Shown: one piece after another, positions 36,301 to 63,537 of the stretch | Numbering within the stretch: position 1 is the stretch's first letter | Layout: the number at the start of each line of letters is the position of its first letter | Program-made: the position numbers and the translations under genes | Assembly (NCBI GenBank): GCA_009192285.1 | Contig: WBVU01000004.1 | Location: 2,812,001-2,876,000 of the forward strand | Reading direction: 5' to 3' | DNA: 64,000 bases | From: Morchella semilibera | Taxonomy: Eukaryota; Ascomycota; Pezizomycetes; Pezizales; Morchellaceae | Notes under the pieces: model-generated | The model's database searches: none | What the model saw: only the letters and a program-made list of their open reading frames with translations | What the model was told of the DNA's origin: nothing

Positions 36301-37001
36301 TGAGGATCAGGCTAATAGGCTGGCAAGGGAAATGTCCCAGGTTTTTGACTTCCTGAAGAGCGAAATGTTTAGAGCTCAGAAGATACAAGAAGAAATGGCA
36401 AATTTACACTGGACTCCGGCAACTGGCTATGCTGTTGGCGATTCCGTTTGGCTTTCTACCGAAATATTGAAACAAAGCGACCTTCGAAGAAACTTGACTG
36501 GAAATGGATTGGTCCCGGTTAAACGAGTCGTGAGTCTCAATGGATATGAGTTGGAATTATCTATTTCCACGAAAATACATCCGGTATTTCATGTTTCACT
36601 ACTATCGCCAGCGATGAATGATTAGGTTCCAAGACAAATTGTTGAACCACCCCCGCCAGTGGAGGTAGAAGGGGAGACTGAATGGGAAGTAGCGGAGTTC
36701 ATCAGCAAACTCAACTTGTGACTGGAGTCTCCCAACGGTCTCCCAAGTCTCCTGAGAGTCTCCTGAGACTCCTGGATATTTTTTGAGTCTCCTGAGGCTC
36801 AGGAGACATCAGGAGACAAATGAAGTCTTGCTGATGTTATTGGACTCTAGGAAGAGGGGACGGCGGGTGGAGTATTTGATTAGATATGTTGGATATGAAG
36901 AACCTTCCTGGCAGCTATCGAGTGATCTTGAACATAGTCCTGACCTTCGAAGAGCATTTCATGATCAATATCCTTCGAAACCTCGACCTATCAGGAGCTA
37001 G
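33365..37001 (+). pseudogene. pol: Ty3 pol polyprotein, several stops
   Basis: Protease: DTGASGYAFIDEDF at about 33400, then a frameshift near 33435 into IVMGIPWMRKHG. A TAA lies at 33920-33922. [55 protein letters not shown]. Further stops lie near 34914, 35176 and 35200-35310. Integrase (35459-36625): CQRSKASHNPLQ, ITMDFVTRL, VSDRGTQFTAEF, HPQTDGQTERKNA. Chromodomain: 36840-37001, separated from the integrase by a MITE at 36700-36836. Comparison with copy I confirms the frame on both sides. Confidence 0.85.
36700..36836 (+). repeat. 137-bp CATCAGCAA MITE in Ty3 integrase tail, TT duplication
   Basis: Left end CATCAGCAAACTC, right end GTCTTGCTGATG. TT is repeated at 36698-36699 and 36837-36838. 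Removing the MITE and one TT restores the frame seen in Ty3 copy I, so the 2-bp duplication is firmly shown here. Confidence 0.93.
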
Positions 37002-52860: not shown

Positions 52861-53250
52861 CATCAGCAAGCTTGCAGTTGTCTCCGGGCGCATAATCCTC
52901 CGCCCTGGCGCATCCCTGCGCCCTCAGCGCCAGGAGCGCCCTGGCGCAAACCTTGTGGTTACCCTGCGCCAGGTGGCACCCTAGGAATTACCCTGCGCCC
53001 GGCGCCCTCCTGGGAATCGCTCTGCGCCTGGCGTTATCCCGTGAATTATCCTGCGACAGGCGCCATACACCGAATCATTCTGCGCCAGGCACCATCCTCT
53101 GAATCATTCTGCGCCAGGCACCATCCTCTGAATTATTCTGCGCCAGGCGCCACCCTATGAATCATTTTGCGCCAGGCTCACCTTATTCTTCTCCATTCAC
53201 GCCAGGAGATTTCCCGTGTCCCATACGGCACCTGGCGTTCCACGAGATTT
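52861..53250. repeat. Left terminal and subterminal array of the Plavaka element
   Basis: The terminal inverted repeat (52861-52891) is followed by about a dozen copies of a TGCGCCAGGCGCC-like motif. From about 53040 to 53170 these form a tandem array of 29-bp units (GAATCATTCTGCGCCAGGCA plus CCATCCTCT). Such arrays near the ends are usual transposase binding sites in CMC-type elements (inference). Confidence 0.8.
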
Positions 53251-53307
53251 GGCGATAGCTCCTTTCACTATCGCGAATCCCTACGAAGCTTTAGGTAGGC
53301 TATATAT

Positions 53308-56300
53308 CTAACTAAATTCATTCCATGTTTGCAGATCTATTCTAGTATTCACAAGCCAGTTTCCCTCATCGATCTCAAATAAATGTGCCATCCCTAAAAT
53401 ACACCGTATATTCACTACCCAAATTTGGTTACTACTCCTTCTAGAGGCTTTAAGAAGACCATGAGAGCTATCGGCAATCCCTAGGTCTTTGGCCTCCAAG
53501 AGTTCGATCGCGCATAGCCGGTGCGCCCGTCCCCTTTTATCCCGTAGCTTAAATAAAGCCTCCAGGCGTCCTGGTAGCCTCCCCCCGAACGCTCCCCATT
53601 GATCTCGAGTCCCCACCGTTACCCATGTCCAATCTCTCCTCGGTGATCTTTTTCTAAATGCTGCATTTCCCGTGCAGCGCAGGTTATGAATTTCGTACGC
53701 ATCTGGTCTTTGAAAAATTGGAACCGGAACCTGGAGGCAGGTAAATCGTTCAACTCGGAGCTCGCCAAGGTTCTCAAGGCTTCCGCCAAAGCTCTCTGAA
53801 CATCCCGCATCCTTCGCATATTCTCTTACCATGCGATAAAATTTTATTCTACTCATCGCAAGTCCATCTGCAATATCGCATAAGCTTTCAAACCTGGTAG
53901 AGCGATTGCAAAGCCTTTTTAAGGGTAACTCTGAGTCGATTATAGGCCGTTCATTCGGTGCTCTCTTCCGGTCTTCTATCTTAAAGATATCAAGTAATTC
54001 TCGCAAGTTCTCACGATGCTCCCATAGGCTCTCGTTGCGGTTCTCGGAAGCTCCGTCAGCTCCCACAATATCCTTGAGGTTTAATATCCGTATTTCTAGT
54101 GCCAATCGCCTTCCGCCGTAATCAAGTATTTGGGTCGCCGCATCAACTTTGTTTGAAGCGGCGTATGCTTCTTTGATTGGGTGTACGTGGGCCAGTTCGC
54201 TGATATCCGTAGAGAACATAGGAATATTCCCGAATCGCTCCACATGCTCTCGGTAATGTGATAATTGATGCAATTTGATGAAGTTGAAATGAGATTTCTC
54301 GCGGATCTCGCGGACCTCTTCTAAGCCACGGTGAATCCTCTGAGAGCTCTCCTGCCGGAGAGCCCGTGTTCGATTCTTTGCATCCTTCTTAGTTTGCTTG
54401 TAGGCTCGAAATTCTAAAAAGATATCCTTATACCTATGGAAGTCCTTGAGATAACTCTCTAGATATTCAAGTGTACTCTTGGTATGATTCCCGTATTGAG
54501 CCATCAGGTGAAAGTCAATCATTGCCCGAACGCATTTCAAAGCCTTTCCGAAGTCAGCTCTGACAGAACTCCCTGGATTTCTCAGAGCCACCGCCAAAGC
54601 TCCCAGAACTATACGCCCTAGGTTTCGCATCTCTTTCTCCTGCCATTGCGTGGTTGCCCTGTAAGGCTTGTTCGGTACTACAAGCCGAGGATAAGGCCCA
54701 ATCTTTGACCATGCTATATCGAACGCGTCGAGACGCCCGTGTTTTTTGAGAAATCCTTGAACCCATTCCATCATATGCTTTAACATTCCAAGGTAGATGT
54801 TGTGTAATAGGTCCGGTTTGTTCAGGTCGTACACCTTGCATCTCGGCATATCCCATAAAGCATTGAAGAGAGTCTTCAAAGACCTCGATACAAGGTATTC
54901 TACCGGCGATGTATTCGTCGGATTCTCATTAAACTGCCGTACCATCTCCTGGTAGGTCTCCTGATCACGCATAGAGCTCTGCTGATAGCTTCCAAGGTTC
55001 TTATACTCCACCTCACATCTTGGGCAGGCGAAATTGCTGATGTTTTGCAACGAGGCGTGCTCAGGTTGGTCCGCGATCCACCCAAACAGTACAGGAAAAC
55101 ATAGCCGTTCATATCCATCCGCACAGGATATCAACTCGCCCTCCTCGCCACTACTTTTCAGTCTTTTGAAGATATCTTTGAGAGCGTTGTGCAGAGCCAT
55201 CTGCGATTCCCGACGCAAAGTTGCATTCGCACTCGCATTTGAACTGAGCTTAGGGGGCACTGGTAATAGCGCCAGGAGTACTAACAAGTGCCCAGAGACT
55301 TTCATTCTCACCGAGGACTTGATATTTCCAATTGTGAGATAGATTGGCCATGCCTTCTTATCACCACTAAAGTTCGTCAGGTGAGTGCCATCCGAGGCAC
55401 AGATTACCGGAACTAATGTCGAACCCTCAGGGAGAGAATTCTTTTTGAGATCAGTCATGACTTTTCTGACTCCAACGAAACCTCCTAAAGATCTCGGAAA
55501 GCTTCTCCTCACCTGTGTTTCCCACCACCAGTCCCCTGTATGCATTTCGCCGTAGATTCTCTCTCCCTTCTCGTTGTGTTCCATTGACGGTGCAAATATA
55601 AGAGACTCCTTGAAGGCCCGTTGTCCAAGGAGGAATCGAATAATGGTCATAGGGTCGCGATAGTAGTATGGTATGTTTTTCCCTCCTATAACAACCTCCA
55701 TATGCTTCCATGTTGATCTCCCTAGGCAATCGTTCATTTCCTCCATTTTTCGTATAAAACCTCGCCCATTTCTATAGGAGCTATGGCAATGGTCTCCAGG
55801 GGCATGTAGAAAGAAGCTATCGATACTTCCTTGTGATGCTTTGGACAAAATAAAGTACCGCGCCATCCGGAATTCATAAGATGAATTGAAAGGGTGCCAT
55901 GGGTTGCCGAGAAGCCGTTGTGCGCTTTTTCGATAGCCCTCAAAGCGATATAGAGCCTCCCCAGCACCTTCGTAGACCGTCGTGGATGCATCGCGAGTAA
56001 CTCCCAACTCCTCCTCACAATCCTCCCTATTGTCTACAAAGTAAGACTCTGATTCTAGGTCTGAATCTCCAGCAGTTCGTTGAGAGAAGTTAGAATATGT
56101 AGATGACCCGTCCTCGCAACTAGCATCATCCTGATCAGAGCTTTCTGAAACCTCGTGAGACTCCTGTAGTCGTTTGTGATTCTCTTGCAAAAGATCGCAT
56201 TGATTTTTGAACCATCCATCCGCTTCGTTAGGGTGGATATTCCGTAGGTGCTTCTCAAAGTTCGCCGAGGAGCTATATCGCTTGCTGCAAAAAGGACAGG

Positions 56301-56310
56301 AGGACTTCAT
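53308..56310 (-). CDS. Plavaka transposase, intact
   Basis: An uninterrupted frame of 1000 residues. A C2H2 zinc finger at the start (C5, C8, H21, H26) probably reads element ends. An acidic linker (about 50-110) follows, then the Plavaka core: PWHPFNSSYEFRMARYFILS (137-156), CASDGTHLTNFSGDKKAW (304-321, likely first catalytic Asp), YLTIGNI, CADGYERLCFPVLFGWIADQ (396-415, likely second Asp, with a C-x2-C pair at 429/432), and KPDLLHNIYLGMLKHMMEW (498-516). The RNase H fold and DDE chemistry are assumed from the family. The long intact frame suggests recent activity. Confidence 0.93.
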   Translation of the reverse strand: MKSSCPFCSKRYSSSANFEKHLRNIHPNEADGWFKNQCDLLQENHKRLQESHEVSESSDQDDASCEDGSSTYSNFSQRTAGDSDLESESYFVDNREDCEEELGVTRDASTTVYEGAGEALYRFEGYRKSAQRLLGNPWHPFNSSYEFRMARYFILSKASQGSIDSFFLHAPGDHCHSSYRNGRGFIRKMEEMNDCLGRSTWKHMEVVIGGKNIPYYYRDPMTIIRFLLGQRAFKESLIFAPSMEHNEKGERIYGEMHTGDWWWETQVRRSFPRSLGGFVGVRKVMTDLKKNSLPEGSTLVPVICASDGTHLTNFSGDKKAWPIYLTIGNIKSSVRMKVSGHLLVLLALLPVPPKLSSNASANATLRRESQMALHNALKDIFKRLKSSGEEGELISCADGYERLCFPVLFGWIADQPEHASLQNISNFACPRCEVEYKNLGSYQQSSMRDQETYQEMVRQFNENPTNTSPVEYLVSRSLKTLFNALWDMPRCKVYDLNKPDLLHNIYLGMLKHMMEWVQGFLKKHGRLDAFDIAWSKIGPYPRLVVPNKPYRATTQWQEKEMRNLGRIVLGALAVALRNPGSSVRADFGKALKCVRAMIDFHLMAQYGNHTKSTLEYLESYLKDFHRYKDIFLEFRAYKQTKKDAKNRTRALRQESSQRIHRGLEEVREIREKSHFNFIKLHQLSHYREHVERFGNIPMFSTDISELAHVHPIKEAYAASNKVDAATQILDYGGRRLALEIRILNLKDIVGADGASENRNESLWEHRENLRELLDIFKIEDRKRAPNERPIIDSELPLKRLCNRSTRFESLCDIADGLAMSRIKFYRMVREYAKDAGCSESFGGSLENLGELRVERFTCLQVPVPIFQRPDAYEIHNLRCTGNAAFRKRSPRRDWTWVTVGTRDQWGAFGGRLPGRLEALFKLRDKRGRAHRLCAIELLEAKDLGIADSSHGLLKASRRSSNQIWVVNIRCILGMAHLFEIDEGNWLVNTRIDLQTWNEFS

Positions 56311-57111
56311 TGGGTGTCGCGATAGCTCCCATGGCTCTCTCGGAGATGGTTCAAAATTACTACTGCCAAGCCTGTAGATTACTAATACTTGCTAGGGTGT
56401 CTTGGAGGGCACATAACCTCTTGCTAAACAAACCTTCTAGCAACGTCATATATTCACGTTGAAAACTAACCAACATATGCTCTCAGAGCAAACCCAACAT
56501 ATGCTCTCAGAACAAACCCAACATCTATCCCACACATCGGCCAAACCTTCTCGGAGTCCACCACTACTCCAAAAGGTTTCACGAATACCCTCAAAATCGT
56601 GGCTCGAGATCGTGGGCAATGCCGGAAAATCCCTATCTTTTGATACCCAAATGACTATATCTGTACTTGAAAACGAGATCAAAACAGCTAACTATTCAAA
56701 GAAAAGTTATCATGCCAACACCAAAGTGGACTCGAATACCAACACTCATGTTGATCTACGTCATTTAGTAACTTACCCAAAAGCATCGAAACACACTCGA
56801 GCAATCAATGATTCTGGCTCTGTGCGTTCTGGCGAAGACTGTGGAAGCTTTCGAAAGATCCTCTCATAGCTCTTAATGACTAATTTGATTTCGTGTGAGT
56901 GTTGGAAGAAGAGGTATAAGAACTGCTTCTTCCACCCTCGGGAGACCTTTCTTCACCATCCCCATTACTCTTCACAACCTCGCCAGGCATTGAGCTGGTG
57001 TGTTCTACCTATATTACGTTAATCATTCGCCTTTTCAATTTCATTTCAACTTGATACCATCCACTTCGACAGCTCCAACCTGATACCTCTCCCAGAGTTT
57101 CAAGTTGAAAG
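56311..57111. promoter_or_regulatory. Divergent region between transposase and passenger 1
   Basis: 801 bp. Contains a 28-bp direct repeat (about 56472-56528, ACATATGCTCTCAGA...) and an open frame at 56459-56869 (136 residues) with no recognisable domain, which may be chance. It probably holds two promoters. Confidence 0.45.
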
Positions 57112-59552
57112 ATGCCTCCCAACGCTAGTAAGGGTACCCCTGGGAAGGTAGTATATAAACACCACATGGTTGTTCCCTAATCCCTATACATTAGTTCCTA
57201 ACATACCTCCAGCCCGGTGGCAAGTCGAGAGGCCCCTCCCATCGTACTCACGATACCTTACAAAGCACTGCCAAAAGCCCTAGAGTAGAGATCCCAACCC
57301 CTCGAAAGCGTCAGCGCCAACCAGTCCCTGAATCCGAAGACGATATTGCCACAAGGCCCCGTCATTTGAACCCACAGGCTCCTGATAGCTCTCCCCAAAG
57401 CTCTCAAAGATTGTTCGCAACCCCCCGAAAACGTGGGCGCCAACAAGTTCTTGATTCCGAAGACGAGATTGCCACACGTCCCCATCGTTCTAACCTGCAG
57501 GCTCCTGATAGCCCTGACACCACTCCCGAAAGCCCTGAAAGATCTCGACCAACCCCTCGAAAGCGTCTGCACCAGCCTATCCCCGAAATCGAAGAGGAAG
57601 ACTCGGAGTTGATTGTTCTCTCACATAGAGTAGGAATTCCCTGGAGTTACGACGGTCCCCCACCAGACCTCACCCCTAAACAGCAACTGACACCCACGAA
57701 GACTGCTCCCGCGCCGCCCAAATCTTCGCAAGCACCCAAGCCGCCTCCACTTTGGAAAAAGGCAACAGCAGCAGCAGATATCGCGTTGGCTAAAGCTTAT
57801 CCAAGCACCCCAGAGACCATCACCACATCTCCTAAAACCACAGCAAAAACCCCCAAAACCACAGCAAAAACCTCTAAAACCACAGCAGCAACCTCCAAAA
57901 CCACAGCAACTTCCAAAACCACTTCAGCATCAGCAACACGGACTGCTGTCGCAGGCCCAAGTACTCCAAAAGCCACAACCAAAGCTCCAAGAGCAACAGC
58001 ACCAACTGCCCGGCGCCAAGATCTGCAGTCTGGGGGATCCTCTACTACTAATTCCCAACCTGCTAGTACACCCCCGAGAGCCATCCACAAAGCTCCCAGA
58101 GCTATCGCGGTATCTAAGAGCGCACATCAAGACGAAGATAGAGACGAGCACAACCATCCCGAGGGCGGAGACGAGGACGAGGACGAGGACAATCAAGACG
58201 AAGAAGAAGACGAAGAAGAAGACGAAGACGAAGACGACGAAGACGAAGACGAACCTCGCCACGCCTCACAAGGACGTCGTCAGAGACAGAAAAAAAAAAG
58301 GGCTTTCAAGGCAAAGTGGTCAAAGGAGGTTGTTTCGATGGACGCAAGCACTGCCAAGGTGACTTTGGGACTGGCCGCCTCGCCAAAGAGTTACAACAGG
58401 TTGAGGAAAGACCTCGCGGCAGAGATGACGAGAACAGGATGGGTCAATAAAAGAACTAGTGGGCTTAAACATTATAATGAGTTGGTGGCATGGCTTCTCG
58501 AACAGAGGCCTCAGGTAGGTTTGGCCACGATTATGGGAGGTCAGAGGAATAGCGCCAGGGCCAAGGTACAGGAAGCACTTACCTGGCTAGTGGTAGATGT
58601 CAGTCGGAAGGAAAAGGTCTCTAAGGGTATGGGGAACCGGGAATTCACCGAGATTGACGCTCACGACCCCGAGCTGGACGCTGACGATTCGGATGATCTG
58701 CCGCAAAGGTCCTCAGAGCGCTCGGCAAAGCGCCAGAAGCTATCGCCACACCCGGACCGGACTAATATCTGGGTCACCGTTGTCGACCCGGACCAGTTTA
58801 ACGACTATGATCCTGATGCTAGCAGACGGGAGTACGCTTGGACTCATGAAAATAATGAGCCTAGTTACGCTGCCGTGGTGACTCGGAAGAATATCCAAGA
58901 GCTTGGGAGAGTCGCATCCAAGCATATCCCTGTTGGTCGATTGGTCAGGGAATTCTATGGCTCGATGAACCAACCAGCCGAACCGGAGGAGGAGCCAACC
59001 TGGGTCCGCATAATGGACACTGAGGAGGTAGAAGCCTGGATGCTGGGAAGCCTGGCGAAACCTCTCCGGGTTCTGGCCATACTTCACAGAGAAGGCCAGA
59101 CTGAGCCCCATGGTGGTGATGAAACCCCTCCTAGAAGACTATACCAGCCGTACACCACCAGTGACGATTATGGACACTTTGAATATCCGGCTGAAGACTC
59201 TGAATTTGAGGGCGGAGTTAGATTGACCTCGATTGGAACCAGGCTTATCATGCCGAATAATGATGCATCGTTCCAGGTAAACCTCCACAAGATCTCGTCA
59301 CGCCGGAATAGGCAGCAAGCAGCCCTTGAGCTCCTCAACCAGAAGTACCTTAATAAGTACCCTGTGGGTGTTGGTATTGCAGACCCTAACTTCAGAATTG
59401 GGCGTGTCTGGGGGGCTGCGGAGATCGCTCAGAAGCGTGAGGAGGACAGAAACAAAGCCCCGCGCCGCCGTACAATGGGAAAGATGAAGACTCCCTTGGT
59501 TCCCCTCCCCGGAGGTAGTGGTGACGGTGACGGTGATGGTGATAGTGCTTAA
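57112..59552 (+). CDS. Plavaka passenger gene 1, unknown nuclear-type protein
   Basis: Exon 1 (57112-57147, MPPNASKGTPGK), a 65-bp intron with a CTAAC branch site, exon 2 (57213-59552); 791 residues, no stops. The N-terminus has three imperfect repeats of about 43 residues, each with TPRKR and most with SEDxIATRP. A Thr/Lys/Ala-rich stretch follows (KTTAKTPKTTAKTSKTT), then an acidic D/E run and a basic RRQRQKKKR (possible nuclear signal). The second half looks folded: KVTLGLAASPKSYNRLRKDL, TGWVNKRTSGLKHYNELVAW and, later, RLIMPNNDASFQVNLHKISS. I do not recognise a family. Being intact on the element suggests it matters to it, perhaps binding DNA or chromatin (inference). Confidence 0.82.
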
Positions 59553-60167
59553 GCCTATTTGGCGAGAGTTTGGAAAGGTTTTGCGAGATTCTGGTGAGTT
59601 ATTCGCACTTCAGCATGATTGATCTATGTTAACCGACCCCATAGATTTTTTCCCCACTATTTTTTATTAAGGTATACAGAGGTTTCGAAAGGTTTGGCGA
59701 TAGCTTTAAGAGCTTTCAAAACGGTCGGTAACAGCTTTGTGTTAGGTATTATTTGTTGTTTCCTTGGTCCGCGCATGTTAAACACGTAGCATTTTGGGTG
59801 ATTACTATTATTAGAGAGTGTTGATTTGAGGCTTGGTATTATTAGATAGCGTTGATTTATTCTTAGGTTGGGAGCATTTATTTGATACTGATAGGTAGCG
59901 AATATCAAAGTGATTTGAAGCCTTCTTGAATGCTACTAGTGATCTCGAAAGCTATCGCGAAGCCTCCTGAAAACATCATTATTGCGAGTGATTACCGATG
60001 AGACTATTTTAACCCAAATTGGTGTGCCCAGCCCATCTAATTAGCCAATTTTAGTCTGTATGTGGTTAGCCTTAGATTACATGAAAAATTTTCACGCCAA
60101 GCACTTCGTTTGATTAGAAATCAGGACAGCTTTCAAAACCCTCAGGGGGGCCCTCACAGGCATCAAG
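59553..60167. other. Spacer between the two passenger genes
   Basis: No gene seen. Holds several CGATAGCT / AAAGCTATCG motifs (59692-59704, 59950-59960) typical of the element, and presumably the passenger 2 promoter. Confidence 0.5.
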
Positions 60168-63012
60168 ATGCCTCAAGCAAAGCGTCCCTCAACGTCCGAA
60201 ACGACCAAATCTACCCCAAGGTTCCCTGACCCTAAAGACCACAATGGGGAAACTACACAGGAAGATCCAGACGAGGGTGAAACTGTACTCGAGAGAGCTT
60301 CCAACACTCTCACGAGAGTCAGCACAACCACGAAGAAAGCTCAAGGAAAGCGGCCGTCAGTATCCGAAAGGAGCACTTCTTCTCGTAAACGTTCAAGGCC
60401 CACAAATGAAATTTCATCGGATGAGGATCTACCTGATCCTCCATTGCGCCGTTCGGCCAAAGCTCAGCGAGTCCCCAAATCGTCTCTGAGGAGCCATTCT
60501 CGACGGAACAAAAAATCTAAAAAATCTGGTGCTCGGGTGGAGTTTAACATCGAAGAACAAACGTCGGAGGGGGAGCAAGAGGTTCAAGAGCGCCTTACAA
60601 CCAGTTCTTCAGAATATGATGATGACTGCCTAGACACTCCGGTAATACGCGACCAGAGCCTGAGGCATCAGGTCGGAGACAAGAGACCCCCGGGAACGCA
60701 GGTCGGAGACAAGAGACCCCCGGGTACGCAAGTCGCCGGAAAGAGACCTCCGAATAGTCAGGTAACGACTGCCAGAGGTGTGGCGAGTGCCCGGAGAAAG
60801 CCCACCAGTGCGGTTGCTGAGGCAATTGCGTCGTCAGCAGTGGAGATTAACGTTATTGAAGTAATTAACCCCAGTCCTTTTTTGATAAGTGACTGAAATG
60901 AAAGAAATTTTAGATGGGAAATCGTACATCGTCGAAGCCAACGAAAAATCCATCAAGCGCTCCACAAAGACCGCCGATGACTCCTGTGGACCCAGCGATG
61001 GCTCCTACTGCTACCCCCAGAAGACTGACTGCTTTTAATTACTCTTCATCTTTTCGTTTCCCGCCCCCTTCCTCTTCTAGGTTTGGAGAATCGTCACCAA
61101 CACCAATGGCATTGAATCCTGGATCCATGCCACCAAGCGATGATAGCTCCTGGGGCGGTTCTACAGGCTTTGGGATTAGCTCTCGAATGCCTCAAAGAAT
61201 GGAGCCATCCCCACTAGGGAGACCACCTCGGAATAATGATACAGCGAACTCTAACTATCTGTCGCCTTCACCTTCTTTACCTCCGCCCCACGATGACGAC
61301 AGGTATCATTACCAAACCCCTGAAAGCTCTCGTCAAGCCTCTTCTGGCCAGATACCTCGTATACCTGCTCCAAACTCTATATTACGGAGCGAGGCGGAAG
61401 ACTGGGCGGAGGGCCAAGGTACACTACCGAGGCGAGACGGAGATATATTATCCGAGGTGGATCGAGGCAAAACTATGGGAGCGAGGCGAGACACGAAGTA
61501 GAACCAGGGAACCGAGTATATTCTTAAAGGACTACAAACTCCTGAAGATAGGAAGGTTGCGTGAAGAGGAAAGGAAAAGAACTATCTACAAGCGAAAACG
61601 AGACCCCTATATATACACCACATGTCGACACGATGACTCATCCACATAACCCTGTACAGAACCCCATAGAATCTCCCAAAACCCGTAACCCCGAACCCAA
61701 CCTTATCTCCTAATCCCGAACCCCTATTACCGAACCAAAACCCTTGCTTCCGAAACCTAAAGAACCTAGAAGAATCCCTGACTAATCCCTCTTCCCGCAA
61801 CATCACTAGACCATGTTCCACGCCGTGATACTCTAGAAGTGCGAGTGTGCTTCCCCCGGAAGCCCAAAGGATCGAGAAAAAGTGTAGTATATTGATAGGT
61901 GATCACACACTGTTTGAGGAGCCTTTTCCAAGCCCTGCGAGACTCTCGGTTTTGGTGGTGAATATGTGGGTACAAGCAAGTCGTAGTGTAGGAATCAGCG
62001 GAGAAATCGACGAGGTTATTATAAAACAGGTGAGTGTCCCCGAAGATCCCATGATAGCTCCTAGGGAACTGAGGAGGCCCCACAGGTTAGGAGCTTGCAC
62101 TCCCGAGTGCGCTCACACCTGATGAGCGCAGTGAAGGAACGGCTAGCAGACTCTAGGATTTACGGAATTGCAAAGATTCGCACACAAGTGGAGAGGGCCG
62201 GGAGAGTTGACTATCTTTTGAGGAATGATCGGTTCATCAGCCATCCAGCGCATTATGAGGTATATCCAAATTCTTGGGGACCACGGCGATAGCTCTAACA
62301 AGCCTTAGACGTCTAGCTGCAAATTCTTGGCTCCGGAGATCATCGAGGTTTTATACTATAGGTTTTTTGATGGGGCGAGGAGGCGAGGGTCCCGTGAACC
62401 AGATTTCCTTGACCGAATAAACCATACGTTAATATATCTAATAGCGACCGCCATTTAGCATAGGATTCGCGCATGGTCCACGGGGAATTATGTGGTGCCG
62501 CAAAATTTCCAGACTCAAAATGATAGTGTAGTGAGTAAGTATTTCTCATATCTCCTAGAGATATGGCGAGTGCTAACCGAGGTGTTACGAATGCTCTAGA
62601 AACCTTCACGAGGATGGTAAACACTTGGACGTCACGTAGTCGTTCCAACCAAGAGGGCATCTTGAAATGGATAAAGGACAATCTCCGAGACAAGGTAAGA
62701 ACCCGATCTTAATCACCGGTTATAACCTAAACTAATGATTTGTAGATACAAGAGAAGAAGGGGGTCACGGTCGAGGATATCCCAGTCGAGGGTCTTAGCG
62801 AGGACGATGATGCTCTGGCGGAGGCTCTGAAAGCTCTCAGGAGTGCTCGGGGAGGCCAAGGCGAGAAATCTAAACCCGGAAAAACTAACCTTCCACCACA
62901 CGGGCTTGAATATGGTACGGATGGAGTGCCGGACCTACCTGAAGAAGAAGAGGAAGAGATTGAGGAAATAGTGGAAGAGGGTGGAGAAACAACAGAAGAG
63001 GACCCTAACTAA
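60168..63012 (+). pseudogene. Plavaka passenger gene 2, DUF6532-like, broken
   Basis: Six exons: 60168-60860, 60914-62029 (holding LTR-B at 61380-61830 plus a CTCTA copy), 62086-62259, 62309-62534, 62600-62694, 62746-63012. Without the LTR they join to 705 codons in one frame, broken only by a TAG at 62456-62458 where a Gln (CAG) is likely. Residues 1-390 are disordered and basic, with a 10-residue tandem repeat (QVGDKRPPGT, 60670-60765). About 405-620 resemble the fungal DUF6532 domain: GDHTLFEEPFPSPARLSVLV, RLADSRIYGIAKI, LIYLIATAI and HRIRAWSTG. The tail is acidic (EEEEEEIEEIVEE). The domain name is from memory; function unknown. Confidence 0.75.
61380..61830 (+). mobile_element. LTR-B solo copy in passenger 2, CTCTA duplication
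   Basis: A 451-bp insertion starting TATTACGGAGCGAGG and ending TTCCACGCCGTGATA, with CTCTA at 61375-61379 and 61831-61835. This is the only LTR-B with both ends and duplication clear, so it defines the family borders. The 5-bp duplication suggests an LTR. The TA...TA termini could be decayed TG...CA. Confidence 0.85.
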
Positions 63013-63189
63013 AATAACGAGATCTCTGAGAGGTATGGGGAAGTCTGTAGAGATAGTAATAAGACCTTATGTATTATTATAATTATTATATAGTGGCGAG
63101 ACTATAAGTGAATATATCCATACCATTCGAGGAACAGAAGAGGCCTCTGAAAGCTATCGTGAGGTGAATAAATACATGAAAAGCACCAA
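63013..63189. other. Passenger 2 3' flank
   Basis: Non-coding, with one GAAAGCTATCG motif at about 63148-63158. Confidence 0.4.
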
Positions 63190-63537
63190 CCAGCACCAGG
63201 AGCTAGATGTGCGCGCCAGGGACTCCCCAGGCGCAATGGATGATGGAAAGTATATTAGCAGGGGAGATCGGGGCGGAAACGTGATGCCCAGGCGGAGCCA
63301 GGCGCAGGGTATCTCCGCCAGGGATATAGGTGCCCTTCCAGGCGTTACCTGAGAGAAAACCAAACTCCTGGCGCTAACCGAGGTTGGGATTTAGTTCAGG
63401 GCTCTCAGGGCGTTGAAAGCCTCGCCCGGAGCGCCCGGAGGTTTGGCGAGGTTCTCAGGAGAATGGGTTTTTATCCGGTGCGCCCTCAGCGCCCTGAGCG
63501 CCTGGAGCACCCGGCGAAATCGGCAGGTTTGCTGATG
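63190..63537. repeat. Right terminal and subterminal array of the Plavaka element
   Basis: The motif CCAGGCGCA/GCGCCAGG recurs about ten times in both orientations (about 63220-63520), then the inverted repeat ending TTTGCTGATG at 63537. It is less regular than the left array, with no 29-bp tandem. Confidence 0.75.

What the first reader, a model, noticed from the sequence alone, without database searches (positions are those of the whole stretch)
52861..63537. A 10.7-kb Plavaka transposon carrying two large passenger genes
Exact borders are set by the terminal repeats, the 2-bp TC duplication and restoration of the interrupted Harbinger frame. Beside an intact 1000-residue transposase it carries about 5.9 kb of intron-containing passenger genes. 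I know of no described function for such passengers, which makes this the strongest candidate here for an undescribed system (for instance a transposase helper, a silencing antagonist or a chromatin reader).
Basis: partly seen in the sequence, partly recalled or inferred. Interest (0 to 1): 0.9.

Follow-up and report, generated by a model that had tools for sequence, protein, structure and literature searches.

The report
Fungal transposon with phased self-address motifs
A fungal jumping gene of the Plavaka group travels with two partner genes and has its own short DNA signature written along its length, even inside its protein-coding genes, in a spelling that differs between its relatives; this looks like a way for the element's proteins to recognise their own DNA.

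Summary
The borders hold: 52861-63537 is a PlavakaB transposon (CATCA..TGATG ends, TC duplication) inside a Harbinger-type transposase gene. The transposase (1000 aa) and passenger 1 (P1) are open. Passenger 2 (P2) is a DUF6532 gene, broken here by a 450-bp insert and an in-frame TAG. The passengers are old parts of the element: of 43 transposase loci found in this genome, 22 have P1 and 33 have P2/DUF6532 on the expected side and strand; P1's core is about as constrained as the transposase (dN/dS ~0.3). The surprise lies elsewhere: octamers of the form GANNGCTC recur through the whole element, in alternating orientation 11 and 10 bp apart (period 21). Four subfamilies share this spacing but differ in the middle letters (strong in A and B, moderate in the window's E, one copy only for C). 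Coding sequence carries it beyond what synonymous shuffles give. Most likely an element-encoded protein (P1 first choice) reads it for self-recognition: anti-silencing like plant VANC, or transposition like CACTA TnpA. Binding is inferred, not shown; other fungi could not be searched.

The parts
52861..63537 (.). PlavakaB transposon, subfamily E
   Evidence: ends, TC duplication, restored DDE_Tnp_4 frame and empty paralogue
52861..52869 (+). left terminal repeat CATCAGCAA
63529..63537 (-). right terminal repeat (CATCAGCAA on the minus strand)
52935..53177 (.). left subterminal tandem array, period 29, unit around CTGCGCCAGGCGCC; CCTGGCGC 12 times in the element, 0 in 52.9 kb outside
53308..56310 (-). 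Plavaka transposase, 1000 aa, N-terminal C2H2 finger (below its Pfam cut-off)
   Evidence: PF18759 E 5.3e-73; Met at codon 27
57112..59552 (+). passenger 1 (P1): inferred exon 57112-57147, intron 57148-57212, exon 57213-59552; acidic/low-complexity N-terminus, conserved core with weak PF24465 (Tri-helical)
   Evidence: first exon and intron inferred from the sequence by eye
60168..63012 (+). passenger 2 (P2): multi-exon DUF6532 gene, broken in this copy; start and exon limits inferred
61380..61829 (.). 450-bp insert inside P2, flanked by ACTCTA on both sides; absent from the C2, C21, C9 and C10 copies
62315..62518 (+). DUF6532 core of P2 with an in-frame TAG
   Evidence: 33.3 bits, cut-off 24
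53766..53805 (.). phased motif cluster, 4 units, inside the transposase gene
54847..54886 (.). phased motif cluster, 4 units, inside the transposase gene
58078..58116 (.). phased motif cluster, 4 units, inside P1
59669..59717 (.). phased motif cluster between P1 and P2, contains GATAGCT-N5-AGCTTTC
60115..60174 (.). phased motif cluster, 4 units, at the start of P2
62032..62081 (.). phased motif cluster, 5 units, within the span of P2
62810..62848 (.). phased motif cluster, 4 units, in P2 (46 clusters in the element in all)

Best explanation
This is one copy of a three-gene PlavakaB transposon lineage (transposase - P1 - P2/DUF6532) whose DNA is marked through its length by a subfamily-specific octamer, GANNGCTC, set in alternating orientation 11 and 10 bp apart. 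Shown: the cassette, the selection on the genes, the motif, its spacing, its difference between subfamilies and its presence in coding sequence. Inferred: an element-encoded protein, most likely P1 (helical core by weak Pfam match, faster diverging than the transposase, duplicated in subfamily B), binds these arrays cooperatively along one face of the helix, about every 190-270 bp, and so recognises its own subfamily. Inferred further: bound in this way it keeps the element free of host silencing (first choice, as VANC does for plant VANDAL elements) and/or helps assemble the transposition complex.
For: P1 on the expected side and strand at 22, P2/DUF6532 at 33 of 43 transposase loci, including subfamilies at 59-72% transposase identity. 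dN/dS of the P1 core mostly 0.31-0.37, range 0.24-0.47 at dS near 0.2, beside 0.27-0.34 for the transposase. Exact 7-bp half-sites 14/14/32 in E/A/B against shuffle maxima 5/6/7; inward pairs with a 5-bp gap 9/12/29 against maxima 3/3/4; outward pairs with a 2-bp gap 15/16/20 against maxima 2/4/4, 200 shuffles each (half-sites came from octamer counts and from contexts, where inverted pairs were already visible by eye; gaps were measured). Learning from each sequence's own commonest octamers: 48/43, 39/41, 102/114 and 26/23 inward/outward pairs in E/A/B/C against at most 15/17 in five 10.6-kb segments outside; direct 21-bp pairs, not used in learning, 4.8 to 21 times their control distances in the four best solutions, 0.65 to 2.6 times outside. 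Genome: 41 vs 3, 62 vs 2 and 188 vs 0 matches for the E, A, B patterns against the reversed control; 26 of 32 distinct E places and 41 of 56 distinct A places lie within 12 kb of a transposase, P1 or P2-exon match, an area of 2.8% of the genome (B not counted, its list was cut). Models learned on non-coding DNA find 31/17/88 pairs in coding DNA of E/A/B, synonymous shuffles at most 13/9/30. Clusters fall at the same transposase codons in different subfamilies (E-A 7 of 18, E-B 10 of 18, A-B 7 of 10; P 0.007, 0.004, 0.003 by circular shift); at codons 197-210 the word reads ATAGCTC, AGTGCTC, AAGGCTC, AAAGCTC in E, A, B, C. The host has PF00145 methyltransferase matches; CpG transitions exceed those at CA in 11 of 12 loci compared (some loci are parts of one copy).
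Against: No binding was shown. P1 matches PF24465 only below the cut-off (20.8 and 21.9 of 27 bits), has no solved relative, and its single-sequence model is useless (pLDDT 35). The motif of E, the window's subfamily, is the weaker: nearby distances are also raised, and in the exact 7-mer scan its score of 10 stands beside up to 8 for other gap pairs in E (partly shifted registers) and 4-5 outside. In that scan C scores 5, no better than outside; C rests on learned models and one copy. Coincidence of clusters across subfamilies is partly plain homology of coding DNA. Retention of the motif among E copies beats all random-substitution runs in only 3 of 18 loci compared (16 above the mean, 2 below; loci overlap, and protein constraint confounds). 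Gene-less 137-bp elements with the same ends hold AGTCTCC-like units, which would favour a role in movement; but their phase at 10.5 bp is no better than at other periods.
Confidence: 0.55

Rival explanations
1. The motif serves transposition, not silencing: P1 or P2 is a TnpA-like accessory protein and the arrays are dispersed cis sites that gather the element into a synaptic complex.
For: Plavaka belongs with CACTA/EnSpm (PMC12730594, passages), whose TnpA binds subterminal repeats that differ between families (PMC2613891, passages). The window element has subterminal repeats. Gene-less 137-bp elements with the same ends hold about ten AGTCTCC-like units, 4 of 9 gaps in the window's one being 9-11 bp.
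Against: 36 of the 46 clusters lie within the spans of the three genes, away from the ends; cut-and-paste should need sites at the ends, not 10 kb of them. The CCTGGCGC subterminal repeat could already fill the TnpA-site role in E and A. The short elements show no sharper phase at 10.5 bp than at other periods.
Confidence: 0.3
2. The arrays are read by a host factor (chromatin or replication protein) and the passengers do something else.
For: No binder has been identified in any call.
Against: Host reading would not readily explain why subfamilies in one genome use different spellings with the same spacing, and a silencing factor would select for loss of its sites, not for codons that write them.
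Confidence: 0.1
3. The motif is a by-product of tandem duplication or base composition with no function, and the passengers are ordinary accessory genes.
For: Subfamilies A and B have tandem 21-bp spaced copies in places.
Against: Inverted pairs do not arise by plain tandem duplication; the sites are spread over 29-50 separate clusters; they exceed dinucleotide shuffles and synonymous shuffles.
Confidence: 0.05

Closest known systems
PlavakaB DNA transposons (Kojima 2025, PMC12730594)
   Same: CATCA..TGATG ends, 2-bp duplication, PF18759 transposase
   Different: the accessory gene described there is a TET/JBP dioxygenase, not found here; the passages and sections read describe no P1, DUF6532 gene or internal motif (its supplements were not open to me)
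VANC anti-silencing system of Arabidopsis VANDAL elements (PMC5735166)
   Same: short motif that differs between related families and repeats within the element; an element-encoded accessory protein
   Different: VANC21 sites are in non-coding DNA; here the motif is also in coding regions and forms an alternating inverted array of period 21, and no binding or demethylation is shown
TnpA and subterminal repeats of CACTA/EnSpm elements (PMC2613891)
   Same: related transposase group, repeat motifs that change between families, separate DNA-binding accessory protein
   Different: CACTA repeats sit near the ends; here 46 clusters run through the whole element

Membership tests
PlavakaB | PF18759 transposase | tested here: met
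   246.5 bits, cut-off 26.3
PlavakaB | 5'-CATCA..TGATG-3' termini | tested here: met
   definition
PlavakaB | 2- or 3-bp target duplication | tested here: met
   TC here, TA in the C2 copy (L004 left end, L009 right end)
PlavakaB | C(2)C and H(3-4)H between second D and last E | tested here: met
   CPRC at 455 and HQLSH at 707 between ADGYER 423 and ISELAH 729; which D and E are catalytic is my reading
TET+ Plavaka | TET/JBP gene in the element | tested here: not met
   no such domain in the frames scanned; of 11 Tet_JBP places in the genome the nearest to a transposase, P1 or P2-exon match is 66.6 kb away (3 lie on contigs without such matches)
VANC-type anti-silencing system | family-specific short motif enriched in the element | tested here: met
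VANC-type anti-silencing system | motif confined to non-coding parts | tested here: not met
   coding enrichment
VANC-type anti-silencing system | accessory protein binds the motif and removes DNA methylation | not testable with these tools
   needs protein and methylation data
VANC-type anti-silencing system | sequence relation of the accessory protein to VANC | not tested
   no VANC sequence was compared
CACTA TnpA system | subterminal repeats at both ends | tested here: met
   29-bp array on the left; two 27-bp repeats with a CGCCAGG core on the right, 70% alike
CACTA TnpA system | accessory protein needed for excision | not testable with these tools
   needs an excision assay
DUF6532 (P2) | Pfam PF20149 over the cut-off | tested here: met
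   33.3 bits in the window copy, read through one TAG by the tool; 33.6 bits in L051; the stop-free window piece alone scores 17.2, below the cut-off of 24
PF24465 Tri-helical (P1) | Pfam score over the cut-off of 27 | tested here: not met
   20.8 bits, 21.9 bits for the core; 4 of 6 members match at E up to 1

The most novel reading that the evidence does not exclude
A transposon writes an address code over its whole length, coding exons included: a subfamily-private, helically phased inverted motif that an element-encoded protein uses to coat and protect or move only its own kind.
Probability: 0.33. Interest if true: 0.93.

Novelty: new variant of a known kind. Interest (0 to 1): 0.8.

Why it matters
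How transposons tell their own DNA from that of the host and of rivals is open outside a few plant cases. It would also be a clear case of coding sequence shaped by a DNA-binding code, and it gives two orphan fungal domains (DUF6532 and the P1 core) a setting and a testable function.

Tried and rejected
P1 as a TET/JBP-type dioxygenase: no such domain, and no Tet_JBP place near the cassette loci. P1 by solved structures: best E 0.12 and 0.43. Single-sequence fold of the P1 core: pLDDT 35; no fold search was made with it. NCBIfam: nothing useful. The paper search for the name of PF24465 gave two unrelated papers.

First learning of half-sites drifted to a looser motif in E and to a palindrome in B; I replaced it by a pair-based version, which is trained on the very pairs it then counts; searches are the less circular tests. 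The noncoding-trained B model also drifted and is poor in distance specificity (69 pairs at 10/9 and 53 at 12/11 beside 88 at 11/10); for E it is 16 and 10 beside 31, for A 0 and 1 beside 17. Subfamily C (L052) is cut up by short insertions and its second-best learned solution was another word (CTCTCCAA). D (L053) and F (L054) proved to be the same subfamilies as B and A and were not counted as independent. With the E model, 24 chains also turn up in 52.9 kb outside, against 46 clusters in 10.7 kb.

In the genome, 6 of 32 distinct E places and 15 of 56 distinct A places lie away from cassette matches. Of the 14 control genomes none has DUF6532, but those named are bacteria and archaea, so this says little. 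Searches behind any statement that a thing is not described in print: open-licence papers only.
Full report
Borders and identity. The element runs from 52861 to 63537. Its ends are CATCAGCAA/TTGCTGATG and it lies between two TC dinucleotides. Joining the flanks gives a 199-aa open frame over the junction with a DDE_Tnp_4 match of 45.5 bits that reaches it, as in Harbinger-type transposases. Places on contigs C12 and C13 align over the junction in one piece at 73%. These ends and the 2-bp duplication are those given for PlavakaB (PMC12730594; outline and abstract, passages, section 18, section 24 part 1). A second copy, on C2, is flanked by TA on both sides (left end in L004, right end in L009).

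Genes. The transposase matches PF18759 at E 5.3e-73 and has an N-terminal C2H2 finger at 20.3 bits, under the cut-off of 25.2. P1 is a 785-codon open frame with a short upstream exon that I infer from splice sites by eye. Its core has invariant residues around WVNK..SG in 6 aligned members of four subfamilies, one of them a near copy of the window's (97%) and two from the tandem pair in L051; 4 of 6 match PF24465 and 2 of 6 DUF7767 at E up to 1, the window's PF24465 score lying below the cut-off. P2 is a DUF6532 gene (L051 piece 33.6 bits). In this copy P2 is broken: a 450-bp insert flanked by ACTCTA and an in-frame TAG in the DUF6532 frame. In L051 the P1 gene is tandemly duplicated.

The cassette. 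Searching the whole genome found 56 transposase, 70 P1, 54 P2-exon-1 and 51 DUF6532 matches (lower bounds by the tool's own statement). By start coordinates these are 43 transposase loci; 22 have P1 within 16 kb and 33 have P2 exon 1 or DUF6532 within 20 kb on the expected side and strand, 9 have neither. Neighbouring elements can lend each other genes in such a count, and some contig pairs look like haplotypes of one region, so the loci are not all independent. The arrangement holds in subfamilies whose transposases are 72% (C, L052), 65-69% (A, L050/L054) and 59% (B, L051) identical to the window's. Of 51 DUF6532 loci, 10 have no transposase, P1 or P2-exon match within 16 kb. Four DUF6532 places match most of the model in one frame and may be other genes.

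Selection. Between the window element and copies with synonymous divergence near 0.2, dN/dS of the P1 core is mostly 0.31-0.37 (range 0.24-0.47), of the P1 N-terminal half mostly 0.3-0.5 (one 0.71), of P2 exon 1 0.37-0.60; for the transposase it is 0.27-0.34 in the three long copies L002, L003, L005 at dS 0.11-0.13. Very close copies give scattered values from few changes, and several loci are parts of one copy. P1 and P2 are thus selected with the element.

The motif. AGCTATCG and GAGCTATC are among the commonest octamers of the element. Relatives from other subfamilies had other favourites, and these fitted GANNGCTC: GATAGCTC 8 in E, 0 in A, in B and in 52.9 kb of window outside; GAGTGCTC 6 in A (1 in E, 0 in B and outside), CAGTGCTC 11 in A (1 outside); GAAGGCTC 23 in B (2 in A, 0 in E and outside). 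Half-sites pair inward with a 5-bp gap and outward with a 2-bp gap in E, A and B, hence a start-to-start rhythm of 11 and 10 bp and a period of 21, two helical turns. Shuffles that keep dinucleotides within 250-bp blocks do not reach these counts in 200 runs. A learner started from each sequence's own commonest octamers found the same rhythm in E, A, B and C and not in five outside segments; direct 21-bp pairs, on which it was not trained, rose only in the elements. Subfamily C, trained from four different seeds, went each time to GAATGCTC, but the plain 7-mer scan did not set C apart from outside sequence. With a model trained on its own pairs, A has 39 at 11 bp (inward) and 41 at 10 bp (outward) against 0-3 at the other distances from 8 to 14 bp. 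The window element has 46 clusters, A 29 and B 50, one per 190-270 bp; 36 of the 46 lie in the spans of the three genes, the P2 span including introns.

Coding sequence. With models learned from the same elements, 12 of 13 coding stretches carry more pairs than any of 300 synonymous shuffles; the exception, P2 of A, has none. With models learned only from non-coding DNA the coding totals are 31, 17 and 88 for E, A and B, shuffle maxima 13, 9 and 30. Clusters lie at the same transposase codons more often than circular shifts predict, though homology of the coding DNA contributes. At codons 197-210 the subfamilies read CATAGCTCCTAT, CAGTGCTCCTAT, CAAGGCTCCTAC and GAAAGCTCCTAC (E, A, B, C): the core stays, the private letters change, and with them the amino acids. 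Copies of the E subfamily keep more pairs than random substitution predicts in 16 of 18 loci, beyond all 60 runs in 3.

Genome-wide. The patterns GAWAGCTN5AGCTNTC, SAGTGCTN5RGCANTS and GAAGGCTN5AGCCNTC occur 41, 62 and 188 times, palindromic sites counted on both strands, against 3, 2 and 0 for the reversed control. Of distinct places, 26 of 32 (E) and 41 of 56 (A) are within 12 kb of a cassette match, in 2.8% of the genome. Copies share sites by descent, so these are not independent events.

Mechanism. One unit per helical turn, alternating in direction, with subfamily-private letters, is what a cooperatively binding dimer would need to mark a stretch of DNA as its own. Which protein reads it is not shown. 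P1 is my first choice: its core falls to 41% (A), 36% (C) and 26-30% (B) identity while the transposase keeps 59-72%, its core is weakly like a three-helix domain, and B has two copies. P2 exon 1 diverges as fast, so P2 and the transposase finger remain possible. For function, plant VANC21 binds YAGTATTAY, the related VANC6 acts at AGTTGTCC/AGTTGTAC, and both cause loss of DNA methylation (PMC5735166, passages; PMC10398659, abstract). CACTA TnpA binds subterminal repeats that differ between families (PMC2613891, passages). The host has PF00145 methyltransferase matches at four places on four contigs, two of them an apparent haplotype pair, and CpG transitions are moderately raised between copies. 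Gene-less 137-bp elements with the same ends carry AGTCTCC-like units (only pairs of ends with equal 2-bp flanks were listed), which hints at a role in movement, but their 10.5-bp phase was not better than that at other periods. That TnpA combines both roles is recalled, not taken from a call.

Novelty. Eleven open-licence papers mention Plavaka, ten of them listed, and one mentions DUF6532, in a list of domains. Of the Plavaka papers I saw passages or sections of four (PMC12730594, PMC9674265, PMC8290104, PMC8955403); nothing in those parts describes this cassette or motif. The proteins and the transposon group are known; the linkage, the phased code and its presence in exons appear undescribed within those limits. 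On re-checking I lowered the probability of the boldest reading slightly (0.35 to 0.33) and the interest from 0.82 to 0.80, because C stands on learned models only, P2 diverges as fast as P1, and the short elements show no clear 10.5-bp phase.

Noticed in passing
window 61380-61829: 450-bp insert in P2 flanked by ACTCTA; similar sequence (78-80%) lies in L022 and L030/L031, so it is a small repeat of its own.
   Followed up: partly
window 36700-36836; L052 3161-3297, 3457-3593, 6924-7060; L053 110-246; L029 1371-1507 and 2732-2868; L038 551-687; L043 3380-3516: 137-bp gene-less elements with CATCAGCAA/TTGCTGATG ends and equal 2-bp flanks (the script listed only those), holding about ten AGTCTCC-like units in the three examined.
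   Followed up: partly
L051 4040-5626 and 6609-7922: P1 is tandemly duplicated in subfamily B.
   Followed up: no
G000:C2:3036241-3042365: About 6 kb separates the two halves of P1 in the close C2 copy, apparently an insertion.
   Followed up: no
contig pairs C9/C10, C12/C13, C21/C22 of G000: Matches recur at nearly the same coordinates, as if the assembly held both nuclear haplotypes in part.
   Followed up: no
G000, 11 places: Tet_JBP matches exist in this genome, 4 over the cut-off, none within 66 kb of a cassette match on the same contig.
   Followed up: partly
transposase versus P1 of copies L002 and L003: Synonymous divergence is lower in the transposase (0.11-0.13) than in P1 (about 0.18-0.20) of the same copies.
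   Followed up: no
L053 (T about 48% to the window's, yet 91% to L051 in DNA): A subfamily B copy whose protein comparison is lowered by stops and shifts, with B-type motifs kept.
   Followed up: no
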